The notes under the pieces were generated by a model. That model saw only the letters and a list, made by a program, of their open reading frames with translations, was not told the DNA's origin and did no database searches. From Athripsodes cinereus (Eukaryota; Arthropoda; Insecta; Trichoptera; Leptoceridae): 64,000 nt of DNA. Position 1 is the stretch's first letter; each line of letters opens with the position of its first letter. A program made the translations under genes and the position numbers. Below, piece after piece: positions 13,956-64,000 of the stretch. The stretch lies in the NCBI GenBank assembly GCA_947579605.1, contig OX388307.1, forward strand, positions 10,021,237 to 10,085,236. The letters are read 5' to 3'.

Positions 13956-15739
13956 ATGAAGAAAATTACTTTTGAATCAAAACACTCCCTAGTAGGCAGA
14001 TAATTCACATTTTGAATTTATTCAATGGAAAAAATCTTGTAAAATGATTTAAACCTCATAGTATAAATCACCAATTTACTACAGAACGCATAATGCGATA
14101 AATACTTTTCCATTGTTATGTGTGCGCACGTCGCAAATTATATATATAACCTAAATTCGTGTGCCATACAGATATCATTGGATATTATTCATTAGGATAA
14201 AAAACAGAAATAAATTTTGTGTATCTTAGTTATTAGCGTGTAGCTGTCATTCATTGTATAGTTATAAAACTAGTGAATTTAGCAAGGTATCACTTCATAT
14301 TTCTAGTCATTTTCAAGTGGTCTCCTTATCATTATTATTGAATATTTGTTGATTTTAATTTTACTACACATATTTTATAAATTTTCATCGGAAGCAAAAT
14401 TTTAATTCTGAATAAAATATTCAAATATTTCTCACTTTTATAAATGATAATATAATAAATATTCTTGGACGATAGCAACTGGGTATAATAACATTATTAA
14501 ACTTTAAATGTATTTGAGTAAACATTTTTCATTACATCTTTGTTTCTACTTTTAAGTATATATTTTTGACTGATAGCTTTTAATATGTCTATTGTTATAC
14601 TTCTACCATTTTCAATAATAATTTTATTATTGTATAATGTGAAATTGTGATATTTATATGACTGATTTACATTTTATTTACCCTTGTTTTTTTTTAACTA
14701 TGATGACTTATATTTTTTTTACTTTTATTATAATACAATTTTCTTTATTACTTTGAAATTAAAATATTTGTTGTGTATTAAAAAAATAGTGTTTTAATTG
14801 TTGGTTTTTTATGTTCCTAGTAAAAAATACAATCTTGGAATAATTTGTTATACTGAATTTCATTTCTCCTCTACATTTATTTTTTTTTTTTAATAGATAT
14901 AACGGCTTTCACAATGAATAATACACTTAATTATTTACATTGCCAATTAATGTGACTAAACTTTGAACAATTTAACAGCACAATATTTAAAAATAATTAT
15001 AGAAAGAGGAAGAGAGAAGGGAATATTTACATATTGTGACATACAAAGACCAATCAGACATGCTGATTTAAGAACTATGTTTTCACAATGTAGCATTGTG
15101 CAACATCTTATCGGAAGCGGAAAGGCGTCCCAATGCCCACGAATTGACTCTAGGCTGGCTTACATGAGCACTTTCAGTATTCATGGATAACACATAAGTC
15201 AGAGTTGGAAGGCAGACCCATTTTTTACTCTGTATTAAAGTATCTTAAACTACTTGTGAAATACTCCAATCTCTTACTTTATCTAATATTTACTGTCTTA
15301 AGTTCCATATTTGTACTTCGATAAAATCTGCGCTAGTTATCGGGAAGAAATTAAATATAGGTGAGGTAAGTATATTATAAAGTTAATGGTACAAATTGAA
15401 TTCATTAATAGGGCTAGGATTTCACTACCTACATAATTAATGTTTATGATTCCTCTTGAATTTGTAAATTAAGGCAGTAGGTGTATAACAATGTAGTATT
15501 AGTTACTGACTATATCAAATCCGTTAATAAAGTTCATATCTAAAATCAATCAACTAAATTGTCTCCAGGAATACGTAAAAGATCTATTCAATAGATCGAG
15601 ATACATACTTACGAAACAAAGCAATCAATGTTACAAATACCTATCTACCTGTGTCAACAGTAATATTAGAGTAAATAATAAAATTTGTTATTTGTCTATA
15701 GCTCTACCTGCTGCTCATTCGATTCTAAAGAGTTGGTAG
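13956..15739. other. AT-rich non-coding stretch
   Basis: No gene, RNA gene or bounded repeat is recognised. The 75-codon frame at 14963-15190 has no supporting features. Confidence 0.4.
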
Positions 15740-15765
15740 GTATCTACCAGTGTTGGGCAAAAATC

Positions 15766-15955
15766 AATTGTAGAAACAATTAACAATTAAATTGCCAGTT
15801 TTTAATTGCAATTAACAATTGAAATTTCAATTGTTAATTGCGAGTAGCCGCAATTTACAATTGATTAGTTGTAATTGTAGAACTTTGCAATTACAATTGA
15901 TTAATTGTTAATTGTAAAATGCATAAAAAAAATAAACAATTAACAATTAAAAAAA
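15766..15955. repeat. CAATT-rich left subterminal zone
   Basis: AACAATTAACAATTAAATTG, TTAATTGCAATTAACAATTG and similar words are packed over about 190 bp just inside the left terminus. The right terminus has the same type of zone at 22560-22780. Clusters of short repeats next to the termini are where hAT transposases bind, so this is the likely cis-acting region. The words themselves are AT-rich and self-complementary, so hairpins are also possible. Confidence 0.75.
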
Positions 15956-16009
15956 ATTGAAGTAATGTGTATGTTTGAAACTAACCGGTATCCGGCCTTC
16001 CACATCTAT

Positions 16010-16136
16010 GTATCTATACCATCATGACATTTCCCACATATGGGGTAGACACTTAGTCAGTAGACTAATTATATGCAATAAACATGTAAGTCGTCCTCTC
16101 CGTGCTAATATCCACAAGTTTATCACATTCCGTTAA
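16010..16136 (-). repeat. Dispersed family copy inside the foldback element
   Basis: CATCATGACATTTCCCACAT, GGGGTAGACACTTAGTCAGT, GCAATAAACATGTAAGTCGT and CCTCTCCGTGCTAAT follow the block order of the dispersed family on the minus strand. It lies directly before the left minisatellite array and shares words with it, which makes it the likely local seed of the monomer. Confidence 0.65.
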
Positions 16137-17967
16137 TCTACTGATTACTCCACTATCTATCCCATCACGGCATTCCCCACAAGTTTATTACATACAGTTT
16201 GTCTACTGATTATCCCACTCCATCTATCTATACCATCGCGACATCTCCCACAAGATTATTACATACAGTTGGTCTACTGACTATCCCACTCTATCTATCT
16301 ATACCATCACGACATCTCCCACAAGATTATTACATACAGTGTTGGTCTACTGACTACCCCACTCTATCTATCTATACCATCACGACATCTCCCACAAGAT
16401 TATTACATACAGTTGGTCTACTGGCTATCCCACTCTATCTATCTATACCATCACGACATCTCCCACAAGATTATTACATACAGTGTTGGTCTACTGACTA
16501 CCCCACTCTATCTATCTATACCATCACGACATCTCCCACAAGATTATTACATACAGTTGGTCTACTGACTATCCCACTCTATCTATCTATACCATCACGA
16601 CATCTCCCACAAGATTATTACATACAGTTGGTCTACTGACTATCCCACTTTATCTATCTATACCATCACGACATCTCCCACAAGATTATTACATACAGTT
16701 GGTCTACTGACTATCCCACTTTATCTATCTATACCATCACGACATCTCCCACAAGATTATTACATACAGTGTTGGTCTACTGACTACCCCACTCTATCTA
16801 TCTATACCATCACGGCATCTCCCTCAAGATTATTACATACAGTGTTGGTCTACTGACTACCCCACTCTATCTATCTATACCATCACGGCATCTCCCACAA
16901 GATTATTACATACAGTTGGTCTACTGACTATCCCACTTTATCTATCTATACCATCACGACATCTCCCACAAGATTATTACATACAGTGTTGGTCTACTGA
17001 CTACCCCACTCTATCTATCTATACCATCACGGCATCTCCCACAAGATTATTACATACAGTTGGTCTACTGACTATCCCACTCTATCTATCTATACCATCA
17101 CGACATCTCCCACAAGATTATTACATACAGTGTTGGTCTACTGACTACCCCACTCTATCTATCTATACCATCACGACATCTCCCACAAGATTATTACATA
17201 CAGTTGGTCTACTGACTATCCCACTTTATCTATCTATACCATCACGACATCTCCCACAAGATTATTACATACAGTGTTGGTCTACTGACTACCCCATTCT
17301 ATCTATCTATACCATCACGACATCTCCCACAAGTTTATTAGATACAGTTGGTCTACTGACTATCCCACTTTATCTATCTATACCATCACGACATCTCCCA
17401 CAAGATTATTACATACAGTTGGTCTACTGACTATCCCACTTTATCTATCTATACCATCACGACATCTCCCACAAGATTATTACATACAGTGTTGGTCTAC
17501 TGACTACCCCACTCTATCTATCTATACCATCACGGCATCTCCCTCAAGATTATTACATACAGTGTTGGTCTACTGACTACCCCACTCTATCTATCTATAC
17601 CATCACGGCATCTCCCACAAGATTATTACATACAGTTGGTCTACTGACTATCCCACTTTATCTATCTATACCATCACGACATCTCCCACAAGATTATTAC
17701 ATACAGTGTTGGTCTACTGACTACCCTACTCTATCTATCTATACCATCACGACATCTCCCACAAGATTATTACATACAGTGTTGGTCTACTGACTACCCC
17801 ATTCTATCTATCTATACCATCACGACATCTCCCACAAGTTTATTACATACAGTTGGTCTACTGACTATCCCACTTTATCTATCTATACCATCACGACATC
17901 TCCCACAAGATTATTACATACAGTGTTGGTCTACTGACTATCCCACTCTATCTATCTATACCATCTT
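16137..17967 (+). repeat. Left minisatellite array, 71/73-bp monomer, about 25 copies
   Basis: The monomer runs CAGTTGGTCTACTGACTATC, CCACTCTATCTATCTATACC, ATCACGACATCTCCCACAAG, ATTATTACATA (71 bp). A variant with CAGTGTTGG instead of CAGTTGG is 73 bp, and the two types are interspersed. Other variants are TACCCCACT/TATCCCACT, CTCTATC/CTTTATC, GACATC/GGCATC and a rare CCCTCAAG. Copies are mostly over 95% alike by eye. A 146-codon open frame at 16199-16639 is produced by the repeat and is not a gene. The right array at 19783-22487 is the same monomer in reverse. Confidence 0.95.
16622..17720 (+). repeat. 720-bp higher-order duplication within the left array
   Basis: The stretch from about 16622 to 17000 reappears at about 17342 to 17720, offset by exactly 720 bp, with only about three differences. 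The diagnostic rare variant CCCTCAAG occurs once in each (near 16822 and 17542), followed by the same sequence of 71- and 73-bp units. This shows a recent block duplication of ten units, as expected from unequal exchange or gene conversion. Confidence 0.85.
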
Positions 17968-18338
17968 TATTTCATATTTTAAAATAGGTGCCATTGAGAT
18001 GGTCTAGAGTCTAGGCTATAGAATAATATGGAATAAATAATAATATTCATCCCTTTTAGTTGCATTACAGATTGCAATGGTCATCTCATTCTACTAATAA
18101 GGGTTATTGTCTTTTGTGTTTCCCTGTCCTGTGGTCTTTGTCTTATTGTCCAGAGTCCATCTATTGTTTGTCGCTCTCTTACAAAGTGAATAGTTGTTGT
18201 AAAATATGTAGACCAAACAAGAATTAGGGTTGTCAGTTGACATGAAAGTTATATAAAACAGTTTAATTTTAAAATGAATTTATTTTTACATATATGTATG
18301 TTTATTACAAATAATAACAGTAAGTTCTGTTCTGTTAA
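17968..18338. other. Loop region of the foldback element, left part
   Basis: Single-copy-looking sequence between the left array and the nested retrotransposon. It has no open frame resembling a hAT transposase. It contains AAGTTCTGTTCTGTTAA, the target into which the retrotransposon was inserted. Confidence 0.55.
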
Positions 18339-19198
18339 GAAGGCTCTAGAAAACTCGACAATGGGAGTAAAGGTCAATGGCGTATGCATCAATAATATAA
18401 GATACGCCGATGACACTGTCATCCTGGCCGATAGCATCGCAGATCTCCAGAAGCTCCTTATAAACATTAATAACGCAGGAGAAGAATTAGGCCTTAATAT
18501 CAACAAAAAGAAGACGAAGTGGATGGCATTTAGCAGAGCAGATTACTCCGCTATAACATTGCAACTCAATGGTGAGCTGCTGGAGAGGGTGGATCGATTT
18601 AAGTACCTGGGTAGTATGATTACGTCGTCTGTGGACCCAGATGTGGAAGTGAAGTGCAGGATTGAAGCAGCCCGTAGCTCATTCAACAAAATGAGATCAA
18701 TATTCTGCAATGACAATATAAATTTGAAACTCAGGCAGAGAATGTTGAAGTGCTTTGTGTGGTCTGTGCTGCTGTATGGCTCAGAAACTTGGACCCTGAA
18801 AGTGCACACTATGAACCGGTTGGAGGCATTCGAGATGTGGTTGCACAGGAGAATGCTTCGCATACCATGGACAGATTTGGTCAGCAACTCGGAGGTTTTG
18901 AGGAGAGCCAATTGCAGTAGACAGCTGCTGAAGGACGTTAAGGTCCGTAAGATTTCATATCTGGGTCACGTTCTGCGGGGCGATAAGTATAGTCTGCTCC
19001 AGCTGATACTGATGGGGAAGATTGAGGGGCAGCGTGGTCCTGGTAGAAGGCAAACGTCTTGGCTGCGCAATATAAGAGACTGGACCGGGATGAGACATGT
19101 GGGAGAACTGTTCCGGGTCGCGCAGGATAGGGAAGCCTTCGCCAGAGTGATTGCCAACGTCGGGGGGACCTGATACGGTACGAGAAGAAGAAGAAGAA
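18339..19198 (+). mobile_element. 5'-truncated RTE-like retrotransposon nested in the loop
   Basis: GTTCTGTTAA is found at 18329-18338 and again at 19199-19208, a 10-bp target-site duplication that brackets the insert. The insert begins inside the reverse transcriptase coding region and ends after the stop codon in a short GAA-repeat tail (GAGAAGAAGAAGAAGAA), as RTE-type and related LINEs do. Truncation at the 5' side and a duplication of this length are standard for target-primed reverse transcription. It is younger than the foldback element that it interrupts. Confidence 0.85.
18340..19173 (+). pseudogene. Reverse transcriptase C-terminal part, still open
   Basis: The frame is open for about 277 codons inside the insert. 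Near its start RYADDTVILADS contains the catalytic YADD motif of palm subdomain C. It continues with LNINKKKTKWMAFS, then FKYLGSMITSSVDPDVEV, a thumb-like part with SVLLYGSETWTLK, and the C-terminal KISYLGHVLRGDKYS and GQRGPGRRQTSWLRNIRDW, ending ANVGGT and TGA at 19171-19173. The endonuclease and fingers domains are absent. The open reading frame extends upstream to 18274, but the part before 18339 is flanking DNA, so the nominal start is accidental. An intact frame suggests a fairly recent insertion. Confidence 0.88.
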
Positions 19199-19208
19199 GT
19201 TCTGTTAA

Positions 19209-19782
19209 ATAATTGACTAAGTGATGAAATTTCTGATATCCTGTTATTTTGACTTCTGTTTAAGTGTTGATTTTGAATAAAAATACGCACTCACGAATAC
19301 TACAATATGAAATTCGCATTCGCGAATGTTAAAATTAGATATTCGAAACATTTATTACGAAAAATTAATTGACGTTCGGTTTTTTTTTTGCAGAAATGAA
19401 TGAAACATTAACGTGCAAGATACATACGTGACTCCATAATTATCAAATAATTGCAAATACTCTTTTGGATGAGTATTATACATTTTTTCTTTTAGGGCAC
19501 CCACACATTTAAAATGCACCACTATACATAAAAATACTATAACCGATGAGAAAAATTCCAAGAGCATGTACTAAACACAATGCAATACACAAAAATTATG
19601 CATTTAATACAAATAATTAAGTGTATAACGAAATGCACAGCCCTGAAAAATGCGAATTTATGATAATGTTCTATGAGTTGTTTATGCTTTAGTCACCTTG
19701 GACCATTTCAAATAATACAAAAAATGTGAAAGTTACCCTTCTTACCTGTAAAATACTTTTATAATGCAGGAGTTGATTTTTA
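19209..19782. other. Loop region of the foldback element, right part
   Basis: AT-rich sequence with an ATTCGCATTCGCGAATG segment near 19311, a word also dense in the MITE at 1963-2326. No transposase or gene is seen. Confidence 0.45.
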
Positions 19783-22487
19783 AGCCGTGATGGTATAGAT
19801 AGATAGAGTGGGATAATCAGTAGACCAACTGTATTTAATAAACTTGTGAGAGATGCCGTGATGGTATAGATAGATAGAGTGAGATAGTCAGTAGACCAAC
19901 TGTATTTAATAAACTTGTGAGAGATGCCGTGATGGTATAGATAGATAGAGTGGGATAGTCAGTAAACCAACTGTATGTAATAACCTTGTGAGAGATGCCG
20001 TGATGGTATAGATAGATAGAGTGGGATAATCAGTAAACCAACTGTATTTAATAAACTTGTGAGAGATGCCGTGATGGTATAGATAGATAGAGTGGGATAG
20101 TCAGTAAACCAACTGTATGTAATAACCTTGTGAGAGATGCCGTGATGGTATAGATAGATAGAGTGGGGTAGTCAGTAGACCAACTGTATGTAATAACCTT
20201 GTGAGAGATGCCGTGATGGTATAGATAGATAGAGTGGGGTAGTCAGTAAACCAACTGTATGTAATAACCTTGTGAGAGATGCCGTGATGGTATAGATAGA
20301 TAGAGTGGGGTAGTCAGTAGACCAACTGTATGTAATAAACTTGTGGGAGATGCCGTGATGGTATAGATAGATAGAGTGGGATAGTCAGTAAACCAACTGT
20401 ATGTAATAACCTTGTGAGAGATGCCGTGATGGTATAGATAGATAGAGTGGGATAATCAGTAAACCAACTGTATTTAATAAACTTGTGAGAGATGCCGTGA
20501 TGGTATAGATAGATAGAGTGGGATAGTCAGTAAACCAACTGTATGTAATAACCTTGTGAGAGATGCCGTGATGGTATAGATAGATAGAGTGGGGTAGTCA
20601 GTAGACCAACTGTATGTAATAACCTTGTGAGAGATGCCGTGATGGTATAGATAGATAGAGTGGGGTAGTCAGTAGACCAACTGTATGTAATAACCTTGTG
20701 AGAGATGCCGTGATGGTATAGATAGATAGAGTGGGGTAGTCAGTAGACCAACTGTATGTAATAAACTTGTGGGAGATGCCGTGATGGTATAGATAGATAG
20801 AGTGGGATAATCAGTAGACCAACTGTATTTAATAAACTTGTGAGAGATGCCGTGATGGTATAGATAGATAGAGTGGGATAGTCAGTAAACCAACTGTATG
20901 TAATAACCTTGTGAGAGATGCCGTGATGGTATATTTTTATTTATTTTTATTTTATTTTCACAATATTTAGAATCAAACAGTCGTTATACAATATGTTGAC
21001 AATTAATATATTTGACATGTAGACCAGCGAAGATTCCACTCTTACCAGAAATGTTTCAATCTTGAGGAAAAAAAAGTAAAAGTTAAAATGCTCAAAAAAA
21101 GTCAAAGTAAATTTAAATTTAAAAACAACGATAATACAATACTTAAAACAATACAAAAACATAAATATAAAAGCAAAAAATCCTAAAATACTAGATAGAT
21201 AGAGTGGGGTAGTCAGTAGACCAACTGTATGTAATAACCTTGTGAGAGATGCCGTGATGGTATAGATAGATAGAGTGGGGTAGTCAGTAAACCAACTGTA
21301 TGTAATAAACTTGTGGGAGATGCCGTGATGGTATAGATAGATAGAGTGGGATAATCAGTAGACCAACTGTATTTAATAAACTTGTGAGAGATGCCGTGAT
21401 GGTATAGATAGATAGAGTGGGATAGTCAGTAGACCAACTGTATGTAATAACCTTGTGAGAGATGCCGTGATGGTATAGATAGATAGAGTGGGGTAGTCAG
21501 TAGACCAACTGTATGTAATAACCTTGTGAGAGATGCCGTGATGGTATAGATAGATAGAGTGGGGTAGTCAGTAAACCAACTGTATGTAATAAACTTGTGG
21601 GAGATGCCGTGATGGTATAGATAGATAGAGTGGGGTAGTCAGTAGACCAACTGTATGTAATAACCTTGTGAGAGATGCCGTGATGGTATAGATAGATAGA
21701 GTGGGGTAGTCAGTAGACCAACTGTATGTAATAACCTTGTGAGAGATGCCGTGATGGTATAGATAGATAGAGTGGGGTAGTCAGTAGACCAACTGTATGT
21801 AATAAACTTGTGGGAGATGCCGTGATGGTATAGATAGATAGAGTGGGATAATCAGTAGACCAACTGTATTTAATAAACTTGTGAGAGATGCCGTGATGGT
21901 ATAGATAGATAGAGTGGGATAGTCAGTAAACCAACTGTATGTAATAACCTTGTGAGAGATGCCGTGATGGTATAGATAGATAGAGTGGGATAGTCAGTAA
22001 ACCAACTGTATGTAATAACCTTGTGAGAGATGCCGTGATGGTATAGATAGATAGAGTGGGGTAGTCAGTAGACCAACTGTATGTAATAACCTTGTGAGAG
22101 ATGCCGTGATGGTATAGATAGATAGAGTGGGATAGTCAGTAAACCAACTGTATGTAATAACCTTGTGAGAGATGCCGTGATGGTATAGATAGATAGAGTG
22201 GGATAGTCAGTAGACCAACTGTATGTAATAACCTTGTGAGAGATGCCGTGATGGTATAGATAGATAGAGTGGGGTAGTCAGTAAACCAACTGTATGTAAT
22301 AAACTTGTGGGAGATGCCGTGATGGTATAGATAGATAGAGTGGGATAATCAGTAGACCAACTGTATTTAATAAACTTGTGAGAGATGCCGTGATGGTATA
22401 GATAGATAGAATGGGATATTCAGTAGACCAACTGTATGAAATAATCTTGAAACTTGTGGGAGATGTCGTGATGGTATAGATAGATTT
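19783..22487 (-). repeat. Right minisatellite array, inverted, about 34 copies
   Basis: Units of 71 bp read GCCGTGATGGTATAGATAGA, TAGAGTGGGATAGTCAGTAG, ACCAACTGTATGTAATAACC, TTGTGAGAGAT on the plus strand, the reverse complement of the left-array monomer. Variants include TTTAATAAACTTG/GTAATAACCTTG, GAGAGATG/GGGAGATG, GTAAACC/GTAGACC and GATAATC/GGTAGTC. The 73-bp variant of the left array is not obvious here, so the two arrays have evolved separately. The array is split by an insert at about 20935-21191. Confidence 0.95.
20935..21191 (-). mobile_element. Truncated LINE tail inserted in the right array
   Basis: Array units stop at GTGATGGTATA and resume at TAGATAGATAGAGTGGGG, with about 257 bp of unrelated AT-rich sequence between. 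Read on the minus strand the insert ends in an A-rich tail made of AAATAAAATAAAAATAAATA, typical of a reverse-transcribed 3' end. No coding motif is readable. The target duplication is short (TA at least) and cannot be resolved inside a repeat. Confidence 0.65.
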
Positions 22488-22559
22488 TAGTTCAATATTT
22501 ACTATTCGGCCAATACCGGATAGTTACTATGGAATATGCATACCGATCTTTGGTATTAA

Positions 22560-22780
22560 TTGTGTTATTTACAATTGACAATTAAGTTAATTGTAAATAA
22601 CACAATTAATTTTTCAATTGCAATTAAATCAATTGTAAAACCACAATTAATGGATTTAATTGCAATTAACTTTAACTGCAGCTCGCTACAATTAAATCAA
22701 TTGCAATTGATTTAATTGCAATTGATTTAACTGCAATTGAAAATTTAATTGTTTGGGCATACAATTGAAAAATCAATTGA
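22560..22780. repeat. CAATT-rich right subterminal zone
   Basis: CAATTGACAATTAAGTTAAT, AATTTTTCAATTGCAATTAA and similar words fill about 220 bp just inside the right terminus and mirror the left zone at 15766-15955. One TTTGGGCAT word near 22752 resembles a second, internal copy of the terminal sequence. Confidence 0.75.
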
Positions 22781-22804
22781 ATAACGCCCAACACTGGTAT
22801 CTAC

Positions 22805-24450
22805 TATCTATGTATATTGAACGAAAAGAAATCCGGACATCCGTTATGGGACTATTCTTAACAAATTCTATTATAAAAAAAATATGTTTATATTTAATAT
22901 AAACATGCATAATATGTACGTGTCATAATAACAGAATTATTTATATAGTACGTCAGTTTAGGACCATCAAAAGGGACAATAAAAATGTATTATCGTAAGT
23001 TGTAAGGCAAATTATATTGTTGTCCGATGTTTGGCGATTATTTTCTGTATTCAAAGTGTATTTTAAGCTAGGAAATGATATTACGTTACTTACAGCTTAA
23101 AGTTTGATCTGTGTACTAAGCAGGATGCGAAAATTACATAATGCAATCTGTTATAATAGAGGTAAAAGTAGATATATCTATTACGTAGTATTATATTCTC
23201 TTTGGATATATCTTCTACAGTCCACACATCGACACGTATTTTTTTACCAGTCGGAGTTAGTGGTACACAACATTTTAATAATATAAAATATTCTTGAAGT
23301 TCTTATGAAAAATACACGTGATAAGGATAAAGGAACATACCTGCTTGCAGTTTTCTTAGAAAAGTAACCCTGTAATCTAATCATCTACTTAGATAACACC
23401 AGGCCCAGAATTATTTGAAAATATTGGATAATCTAAAAGTAGGTACCTAAATATTGGATAATCAACGAGTATCTACCTACATTTTTCTCTATACAAGAAG
23501 TTTTTTTTTATTTAGGCAAGATACATAGGTATACCTACGATATAAAATATATATTATAATGTATCGCTCGCTTGCAAGAACAATGACATATCTCAAAAAA
23601 TGCAGTTCTGAGATAAACGCATGATTAAATAAACATTTATATTTTGGATGTAGATAGATATCTATATAAAATATCTAAAACCACTATATAAAATGGTTAT
23701 GATGTCATTATAAGCAGTTTATTCTAGAAATGTCAAAAAAATTGTGAATTCATATGTCCCTTTTTGAATATGCAACGACGATATTTAAATTAACTCGGCA
23801 ATAGTGTAACGGAGCTTAAATTATGACAGATATTTATTTCTAATTTATTAGATTATTTTATTAGCAATTTATTAGAAAGAAACACAATTCCCTCAGTCGC
23901 TATCTTACGTGGCACGGTTTTTTATATAGAAAAATCAATCTTATTGCAAAGACAGAGTACCTATATATTTTTGATTGAATTTGCTCAAAGTGCACAGTCT
24001 TGTAATTTTATAAATCTACGGTATTTATACTTAATAGATCAAATTCAAGATTGCTTTTCTCTCCAGACTTCATCTTTTGGAAATGCAGTAGGTATAGGTA
24101 GGTAGGTAATTCTAGCAAAATACCTAATAATATAATTATATCTACCAAAGAATCATATTTCTACCACCATAAATATTGTTCTTGACCCCTGATCCAATCT
24201 CCGTTCTACACAGGACATAATACCTCAGAAAATCGTAAAAGATTATAATATTATTATTTCATATTTCACGACGTTAAGTCAAAGTGCAATCGTGTTCTAC
24301 CTCCATTTGTACGGCTAATAAAATAAAGTATTTATTTAACTCACAGTAAATCCTCGCAACAAGAACCTAGAAGACATATTAAGCAAAACACGAGATCACA
24401 ATCTTGAAGAAATTTATATTCTCATTATTGGCTCCAAAAGTAGTAATATT
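22805..24450. other. AT-rich non-coding stretch
   Basis: No gene or bounded element is seen. Short GTAGGTAGGTA-type words occur near 24090-24107. Confidence 0.4.
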
Positions 24451-58590: not shown

Positions 58591-59090
58591 CAATGCTCTT
58601 TTCCAAGTCACTCTTTGCAATGGGAAATGTAGCCAATGTAAATACCTACTAGATATATAAACATGTAGGTAGTATTAGATACAGAGAAAGTATAATATTG
58701 CAAAGTGTCGTGTATCTACATATAACAAATTGTAATGTATGTGCCTATAAATGAAAGTATGTTACAAGAAGACAAATACAAGTCGCTGATTTACAAAACA
58801 TAACTTTTACGCAGAGAAATAAGGGGAACTAGAGCGAATGAAGGATTAGAAAAGAAATTTTAAGGCAGGTGTCAAATTACATAGGTACTGGATGCTATAA
58901 GTCTGGATTATTTTTATTCTGGTGGGAATTTGGATGGCGAATACGGAAAATGATTGTAAAAGTTTCTTTTACTATTTCCCTTGTACTAATATTAATAACC
59001 ACATAATTCACTCGGTGTCGGGTGGCTTGCTTCAAGAAAAGTGGAAGATGAATACATATTAGGTAATAACCATTAATATGTTGAAAGGAA

Positions 59091-59448
59091 AACTTTCATA
59101 CCTAGTAGACACATAATATTCTTCAAATCGATTGTTTGTGTGGAAAAATATGATAATGATACAATTATCAACATTGCTACCCTATAACATTACTGCAATT
59201 GAAATGCATACATACGGTCACGGCATTTCCCAAGAATCACGTGGCCAGCGGACTAACTGCATGTAATAAACTTTCATACCTAGTGGACACATAATATTCT
59301 TCAAATCGATTGTTTGTGTGGAAAAATATGATAATGATACAATTATCAACATTGCTACCCTATAACATTACTGCAATTGAAATGCATACATACGGTCACG
59401 GCATTTCCCAAGAATCACGTGGCCAGCGGACTAACTGCATGTAATAAA
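59091..59448. repeat. Recent 178-bp tandem duplication
   Basis: The segment beginning AACTTTCATACCTAGTAGAC at 59091 repeats at 59269 with one visible difference (AGTAGAC against AGTGGAC). Each unit contains a minus-strand piece of the dispersed family (GGTCACGGCATTTCCCAAGA, CGTGGCCAGCGGACTAACTG). Near-identity marks a recent event and shows the dispersed family starting to tandemise. Confidence 0.9.
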
Positions 59449-59499
59449 CATCAAGTTGTCCTCTCCGTTTCAATAAAAATTAAGGCATTCATGATGAGT

Positions 59500-63459: not shown

Positions 63460-64000
63460 TACATTAAGATGAGGTTTTTAGTAGTTTTTGCACGTAGGTA
63501 CCCGCCTATTTTTCTAAATAAAATATGAGCTTTCGAGGTGTCGAGCTCACATATTTTTCATTTGGAAGAGGTTTTTAGCACTTTTTCCATGTAGGTACCT
63601 ACCAATATGTGGAATTTCTTAACTTCAAGCTTTTTCATCGGGACGAGGTTGTTAGTACTTTTTTTTTCCATGTAGGTGCCTACTTATTATTTTTTTACAT
63701 AAATGTGAACATCTGAGGTGTCAAACTTCAAGATTTTTCAATGGGAAGAGGTTTTTAGCACTTTTTTCGATGTTGGCACCTACCTATTTTTTTTTAACTA
63801 AATATGGGCATGTGAGGTATCAAACTTCATGATTTTTCATTGGGAAGAGTTTTTCAGCACTTTTTTCGATGTAGGTACCTACCTATTTTTTTTACCTAAG
63901 TATGGGCATGTGAGGTATCAAACTTCATGATTTTTCATTGGGAAGAGTTTTTCAGCACTTTTTTCGATGTAGGTACCTACCTATTTTTTTTACCTAAGTA
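63460..64000. repeat. 97-100-bp tandem satellite, truncated by the window edge
   Basis: Each unit contains a GTAGGTACCTACC-like palindrome, TATGGGCATGTGAGGTATC, AAACTTCATGATTTTTCATT and GGGAAGAGTTTTTCAGCACT. Successive GTAGGTACC words start near 63494, 63591, 63672, 63772, 63871 and 63969, giving spacings of 97, 81, 100, 99 and 98 bp. The last units are nearly identical and the first are more diverged, so growth seems to be at the right, beyond the window. Confidence 0.85.

What the first reader, a model, noticed from the sequence alone, without database searches (positions are those of the whole stretch)
15748..22796. A 7-kb foldback hAT-type element whose two arms are inverted minisatellite arrays
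Seen: 11-bp inverted ends CAGTGTTGGGC, a perfect 8-bp flank duplication GTATCTAC, mirrored CAATT-rich zones, and about 25 and about 34 copies of one 71/73-bp monomer in opposite orientations around a 1.8-kb loop. Known: hAT elements make 8-bp duplications and many start CAGTG. Inferred: this is one mobile unit, not three separate repeats. Non-autonomous hATs are normally under 1 kb. One that has grown large inverted satellite arms would be unusual, because its transcript could form very long double-stranded RNA and its DNA a large cruciform.
Basis: partly seen in the sequence, partly recalled or inferred. Interest (0 to 1): 0.92.

Follow-up and report, generated by a model that had tools for sequence, protein, structure and literature searches.

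The report
Young transposon with mirrored minisatellite arms
This is one of about forty copies of a jumping-gene parasite whose two halves carry long mirror-image arrays of a 71-base repeat that grow and shrink separately in each copy, a new twist on known "foldback" transposons.

Summary
Window 15748-22796 is one mobile unit with a perfect 8-bp duplication (GTATCTAC). In the same genome 29 further two-armed copies have both ends read; 28 of these 29 have perfect 8-bp flank duplications, one has a mismatch. One copy sits in a 98-bp tandem repeat, and joining its flanks restores that repeat, an empty site by paralogy. Anatomy is constant: asymmetric 23-bp ends, CAATT-rich zones of about 270 and 315 bp, 71/73-bp arrays in opposite orientation, and a non-coding core of about 940 bp found in 35 loci, each with family sequence. 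Cores differ from consensus by 0-10 substitutions in 26 of 29 copies, yet arrays hold 5-26 and 5-35 units. The arms share none of 142 unit types. Duplications follow nTnnnnAn in 14 of 32, as for hAT elements. None of 150 scored hAT-transposase hits (648 candidates) lies within 10 kb of 78 family ends, so the supplier of movement is unknown. I call it a hAT-type, non-autonomous foldback family: a new variant of a known kind.

The parts
15740..15747 (.). left copy of the 8-bp target-site duplication GTATCTAC
15748..15770 (+). left 23-bp terminal motif CAGTGTTGGGCAAAAATCAATTG (L type)
15748..16011 (+). left end plus CAATT-rich subterminal zone; 40 loci in the genome, this one included
16012..17965 (+). 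left arm: 26 units of 71/73 bp counting edge units (tandem proper from 16153)
17966..19780 (+). core (non-coding, about 940 bp without its insertion)
18332..19196 (+). nested reverse-transcriptase fragment with GAA tail, flanked by repeat AAGTTCTGTT (18322-18331 and 19197-19206, read by eye); absent from the core consensus
19781..22481 (-). right arm: 35 units of 71 bp in opposite orientation (one interrupted)
20932..21191 (.). insertion of about 260 bp inside the right arm, boundaries approximate (read by eye)
22482..22796 (-). right end plus CAATT-rich subterminal zone
22774..22796 (-). right 23-bp terminal motif CAGTGTTGGGCGTTATTCAATTG (R type)
22797..22804 (.). right copy of the target-site duplication GTATCTAC

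Best explanation
A young, non-autonomous hAT-type foldback family. SHOWN: fixed anatomy (L end and CAATT zone, + array, non-coding core, inverted array, CAATT zone and R end), insertion with 8-bp duplications, near-identical cores, arrays that differ between copies by units, and arms that share no unit type in the copies measured. INFERRED: a hAT transposase supplied in trans binds the tips and the AATTG-rich subterminal zones and moves the unit by cut and paste, carrying the arrays along. Each arm lengthens or shortens by slippage, unequal exchange or gap repair within the same arm, not by exchange between arms. The arrays are most likely tolerated cargo.
For:: 8-bp flanks in 30 two-armed copies, 29 perfect and L022 with one mismatch; L031, L049 and L059 are also perfect; among the roughly 290-bp flanks of L009-L035 and the window, only three pairs of copies share matches (44-171 bp); L055-L059 were not compared; empty site; cores 0-10 substitutions from consensus in 26 of 29, 18-21 in L020, L033, L058; 72 left and 70 right unit types, 0 shared, in 315 + 381 units; left and right unit maps resemble each other across copies (Mantel 0.60, p 0.0005), and both follow the core (0.31, p 0.015; 0.36, p 0.010), while unit counts of the two arms are not correlated (rho 0.20, p 0.30); copies at different sites with matching arrays (L013/L014 identical over 2638 bp; L010/L028 identical apart from 257 extra bases; L022/L056 one mismatch and one gap base), so a move can keep arrays; L021/L027 differ by 144 gap bases (about two units) and 3 mismatches; nTnnnnAn in 14 of 32 duplications against 12.1% in the window's own sequence, p 8e-6; nnnTAnnn in 0 of 32. 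Hermes prefers nTnnnnAn and needs about 220 bp of each end; Tol2 200/150, Tag1 about 100, Ac at least 200 (PMC10368747, passages), which suits zones of 270 and 315 bp; longest frame in the core consensus 71 aa.
Against: No transposase with these ends was found: 0 of 78 end sites lie within 10 kb of any of 150 scored PF05699 hits (150 of 648 candidates scored), and 14 hit groups inspected lack the ends (five as 5-kb windows, nine only 1.1 kb on the 3' side). hAT membership therefore rests on duplication and ends. 18 of 32 duplications do not fit nTnnnnAn. That arrays are mere cargo is not shown: all 58 arms of the 29 measured copies keep at least 5 units, edge units counted.
Confidence: 0.8

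Rival explanations
1. The arms are functional: each unit is a transposase or host-factor site in the same orientation as the nearest end, and arms are kept because they raise mobility, as proposed for Galileo and Tetris.
For:: 89 of 294 left units carry CAGTGTTGGTC, the terminal 11-mer with one mismatch in the orientation of the left end; no arm among 58 has fewer than 5 units, edge units counted; the Tetris paper suggests this for tandem repeats in foldback ends.
Against: 0 of 305 right units carry the 11-mer and the unit consensus of the single-array copies lacks it. Single-array copies L049 and L059 have perfect 8-bp duplications, although their second arm may have been lost after insertion.
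Confidence: 0.15
2. It belongs to another superfamily with 8-bp or near duplications (P/Galileo, Mutator/FB, Merlin) and only looks like a hAT.
For: No cognate transposase found. The Tetris paper says most foldbacks seem to belong to Mutator, and three Galileo copies of D. willistoni have 8-bp duplications.
Against: All 33 duplications read are 8 bp, one with a mismatch, and 14 of the 32 perfect ones fit nTnnnnAn; Galileo mostly 7 bp with GTATTAC, Tm1 9 bp, Tetris 8-10 bp. CAGTG ends are typical of hATs (recalled).
Confidence: 0.08
3. Two satellites, a spacer and chance ends that merely lie side by side.
For: Only that some ends stand alone: 14 of 78 have no partner within 14 kb.
Against: Two inverted arrays around the core in 31 of 34 left-end loci read, 8-bp flanks, empty site, all 35 core loci in or beside a family copy.
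Confidence: 0.005
4. On origin: the two-armed form came first and single-array copies are deletion derivatives; or the reverse, single array first and foldback later by an inverted gain.
For: Deletion: L045 joins the + array to the last bases of a - array beside the R zone. Single first: the unit consensus of L045 and L059 equals that of the right arms of L058 and L036 (L049, four units, differs at one position) and not that of left arms.
Against: Three single-array copies only; six left-end loci were not read.
Confidence: 0.5

Closest known systems
Tetris, foldback of Drosophila virilis (PMC4079207; abstract, sections 10 and 19, passages seen)
   Same: apparently non-autonomous; flanking domain, variable tandem repeats, inner domain and middle; no coding capacity; array-length alleles
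   Different: 8-10 bp duplications, 220-bp repeat, three or four repeats in the allelic copies described, three complete copies, suggested by its authors to be Mutator; here constant 8 bp, hAT-type ends, 71-bp unit up to 35 per arm, 30 two-armed copies
Tm1 Mutator/Foldback of root-knot nematodes (PMC3169594; passages seen)
   Same: 1-9 tandem motifs in the ends, number differing between ends of one element
   Different: 9-bp duplications, 14-bp motif, placed in Mutator, a copy with a putative transposase known
Galileo, P superfamily (PMC4168063; passages seen)
   Same: long inverted ends; tandem repeats within them in the longest D. willistoni copy
   Different: mostly 7-bp duplications with GTATTAC consensus; tandem repeats in a single copy there
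Hermes / hAT superfamily (PMC10368747; passages seen)
   Same: 8-bp nTnnnnAn target sites, long end requirement, asymmetric ends with subterminal repeats
   Different: Hermes encodes its transposase; no inverted arrays mentioned in the passages seen
MITEs with (GTCY)n microsatellites in Lepidoptera (Coates 2011, seen only as cited in passages of PMC9659126)
   Same: a non-autonomous element of the same insect order (by inference) that carries tandem repeats about the genome
   Different: microsatellite, not inverted 71-bp arms; not compared here
FB of D. melanogaster and TU of sea urchin (recalled; named or cited in PMC4079207)
   Same: foldback with tandem repeats in the arms
   Different: not compared here

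Membership tests
hAT superfamily | 8-bp target-site duplication | tested here: met
   32 perfect and 1 with one mismatch of 33 copies with both ends read
hAT superfamily | target preference nTnnnnAn | tested here: met
   14 of 32 against 12.1% background, p 8e-6 (background)
hAT superfamily | short terminal inverted repeats, CAGTG type | tested here: met
   70 exact and 8 one-mismatch 23-bp ends; that CAGTG is typical is recalled
hAT superfamily | mobilised by a hAT transposase; autonomous copy with same ends | tested here: inconclusive
   none found: 0 of 78 ends within 10 kb of 150 hits, 150 of 648 candidates scored
Foldback elements (structural group) | long inverted arms built of tandem repeats of variable number | tested here: met
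   29 copies measured, 5-26 and 5-35 units
Mutator-type foldbacks (Tm1, FB) | 9-bp duplication (Tm1; FB recalled) | tested here: not met
   8 bp in 33 of 33 copies with both ends read
P superfamily (Galileo) | mostly 7-bp duplication, GTATTAC | tested here: not met
MITE | short (under about 1 kb), high copy | tested here: not met
   29 copies of 2.4-7.0 kb, about 40 loci; L049 of 730 bp is an exception

The most novel reading that the evidence does not exclude
The inverted minisatellite arms are a maintained working part of a hAT element: a minimum number of units per arm is needed for mobility or for evading silencing, so the family is a dispersing set of paired, hypervariable minisatellites under transposition-level selection.
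Probability: 0.15. Interest if true: 0.75.

Novelty: new variant of a known kind. Interest (0 to 1): 0.55.

Why it matters
About thirty near-identical copies with readable unit maps give a natural experiment on how minisatellites change inside a mobile element. Two inverted arms, 92% complementary in the window copy, share no unit type in the copies measured, and arrays differ widely between copies whose cores carry no substitution. It widens foldback elements to a hAT-type family and makes array-driven size change, inverted-repeat instability and small-RNA targeting testable copy by copy.

Tried and rejected
Autonomous partner: 14 groups of transposase hits (grouped by score and frame length) inspected, five as 5-kb windows (L050-L054) and nine on the 3' side only (L060-L068); none has the ends with an AATTG zone. 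The CCCGGG-rich right part of L059 looked like a partner's end, but one search showed that it recurs at 98-100% as an abundant element (1612 candidates, 40 scored): of 39 other matches, 32 begin only at base 11-13 from the tip, 7 begin at base 2-8. I read it as a nested insertion; this is inference. Nine single 11-mer sites (L037, L039-L044, L046, L048) have no mate with matching flank within the 8 kb fetched and no family zones; four long frames in three of them are a UDP-glucose pyrophosphorylase, a zinc-finger protein, a reverse transcriptase and one without match; the rest were not searched. The terminal-like 11-mer in 73-bp units was weighed as a cryptic end and set aside (left arms only, absent from the single-array consensus). 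Rfam at gathering thresholds on 15500-23000: nothing. One unit pattern in viral contigs: nothing. Literature: seen as listings; two searches were empty and one search returned unrelated papers. None of these listings shows a hAT foldback with minisatellite arms in title or abstract, but subscription papers and Repbase were not searched.

Rows dropped from the 29: L017/L018 (ends of one 13-kb copy, TSD GTAGTGGG, middle not read), L031 (left arm lost), L047 (right tip missing), L036 and L038 (one end), and single-array L045, L049, L059. Six of 40 left-end loci were not read, nor three lone R ends.

Full report
What is there. Window 15748-22796 starts and ends with the inverted 11-mer CAGTGTTGGGC and is flanked by GTATCTAC on both sides. 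Tandem Repeats Finder gives arrays of 71 bp (with 73-bp variants) at 16153-17965 and, reverse-complemented, at 19784-22485. By my segmentation the left arm has 26 units and the right 35, edge units included. The arms align at 92% over 1.3 kb.

It is a family. The window lies in a 716-Mb assembly of 160 contigs, by size and repeat style probably a moth or butterfly (inference). The 11-mer occurs 62 + 59 times against 17 + 21 for the reversed control. All 25 close pairs fetched have matching 8-bp flanks, 24 perfect and one (L022) with one mismatch; 24 of the 25 are two-armed, L031 is not. L055-L058 and the 13-kb copy L017/L018 add five perfect ones. Thirty two-armed copies with both ends are therefore known, the window included. 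Among flanks of about 290 bp, three pairs of copies share 44-171 bp; L055-L059 were not compared. L009 sits in a 98-bp tandem repeat; with one CTACCTAA kept, the joined flanks form an unbroken repeat array, and the 80 bp across the junction match a neighbouring unit at 91%, which is an empty site by paralogy.

Extent. A search with the left zone finds 40 loci, the window included (40 of 42 candidates scored). I read 34: 31 two-armed (L047 without its right tip, L018 interrupted) and three with one array only (L045, L049, L059). The 23-bp end motif gives 70 exact and 8 one-mismatch sites, then four two-mismatch sites that look like chance; up to three mismatches there are 115 + 130 sites against 68 + 68 for the control. 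Of the 78, 64 have a partner within 14 kb and 14 do not. The core search, with all 38 candidates scored, gives by my count of the rows 35 loci besides two 60-bp matches at 80-83%; 33 are copies I read and the other two lie near left-end hits. The core is thus not a captured piece with a parent elsewhere in this assembly. The listed part of the unit matches falls, by my count, in 34 loci, 32 of them among the left-end loci and the other two being L031 and L036; the list was cut and only 40 of 306 candidates were scored, so solo arrays are not excluded.

Age and array change. Twenty-six of 29 cores are 0-10 substitutions (up to about 1%) from the consensus; L020, L033 and L058 are at 18-21 (about 2%) and also shorter, 889-890 bp. 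By BLAST, gaps counted, those three and L047 are at 91-92% and L036 at 89%. Seven copies with zero core substitutions (L010, L022, L023, L024, L025, L028, L056) have 5/7, 18/15, 9/23, 11/6, 9/11, 5/7 and 18/15 units. In one search, 16 core-identical pairs were found among 23 copies, and two of them have equal counts in both arms. Unit maps show shared outer and core-side units and more variable middles: in 26 young copies the core-adjacent unit is the same in 24 in each arm, the outermost in 19 (left) and 20 (right), the fifth from the end in 8 and 13. No unit type occurs in both arms: 0 of 118 in the first set, 0 of 142 in the set of 29. Left and right maps are nevertheless inherited together (Mantel 0.60, p 0.0005). 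Hence change occurs within an arm, and exchange between inverted arms is rare or absent.

Does moving change arrays? Several pairs at different sites keep them: L013/L014 are identical over 2638 bp with different duplications, L022/L056 differ by one mismatch and one gap base, and L010/L028 only by 257 extra bases. So a move can copy arrays faithfully; the rate of change in place is unmeasured.

Superfamily. Thirty-two perfect duplications of 8 bp show nTnnnnAn in 14 (12.1% expected from the window's sequence, p 8e-6) and nnnTAnnn in none. Hermes shows the same target pattern and needs about 220 bp of each end, and other hATs need about 100-200 bp (passages of PMC10368747). The AATTG-dense zones (24-29 words per end in three copies) fit such subterminal binding regions. 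That is inference: no cognate transposase was found. PF05699 gives 150 scored hits of 648 candidates, none within 10 kb of the 78 ends, and the inspected groups have other ends.

Single-array relatives. L049 (730 bp, about 5 units), L059 (14 units, 12-14 bp of right end by my reading, plus a probable nested element) and L045 (99 unit matches in one direction, right tip missing) share left-zone features. The unit consensus of L045 and L059 equals that of the right arms of L058 and L036 rather than any left arm. The outermost left unit already holds an inverted partial unit (82% over 34 bp). Either order of events, single array first or two arms first, remains open.

Mechanism. Most likely a hAT transposase in trans cuts at the 23-bp ends and inserts with an 8-bp stagger (the step is inferred, its product is shown). 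The arrays ride along. Slippage or unequal exchange between units of one arm makes whole-unit gains and losses (inferred from maps). As RNA, one of the smallest copies (L010) folds with 337 base pairs, of 878 in all, between its left array of 443 bp and its right array (no shuffled control), so long dsRNA is physically possible; whether it is transcribed is untested.

Known versus new. Foldbacks with tandem repeats in the ends are known: Tetris, Galileo, Tm1, FB and TU (recalled). New here are the hAT-type signature, a large young set, long arms and the separation of unit types between arms. The searches named in Tried and rejected listed no such hAT family in the open-access library; that is not proof of absence in print.

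Noticed in passing
window 63621-63997: A 98-bp tandem repeat whose consensus is nearly the same as the repeat into which copy L009 inserted on another contig.
   Followed up: partly
window 59090-59449: Two copies of a 178-bp unit at 99% matches.
   Followed up: no
window 18332-19196: Reverse-transcriptase fragment (PF00078, 3.8e-10) with a GAA tail nested in the core of this copy and absent from the core consensus.
   Followed up: yes
L045 301-7935: A copy made of one array of 99 unit matches in a single direction, without core or inverted arm, right tip missing.
   Followed up: partly
G000:C9:10311-17754 (not fetched): Left end and core lie 6.6 kb apart, so the left arm may exceed 80 units, larger than in the window.
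   Followed up: no
L059 about 1728-2050: Probable nested copy of a very abundant element rich in CCCGGG palindromes (1612 candidates in the genome), apparently flanked by TA.
   Followed up: partly
L054 944-3823: A different hAT element with CAGAGGCGGC ends and duplication TTCTTAAG around a transposase hit with an open frame of 699 aa.
   Followed up: no
G000:C21:14518960-14627625: Four hAT transposase hits with frames of 634 aa and the same score at 35-37 kb spacing, like a segmental array.
   Followed up: no
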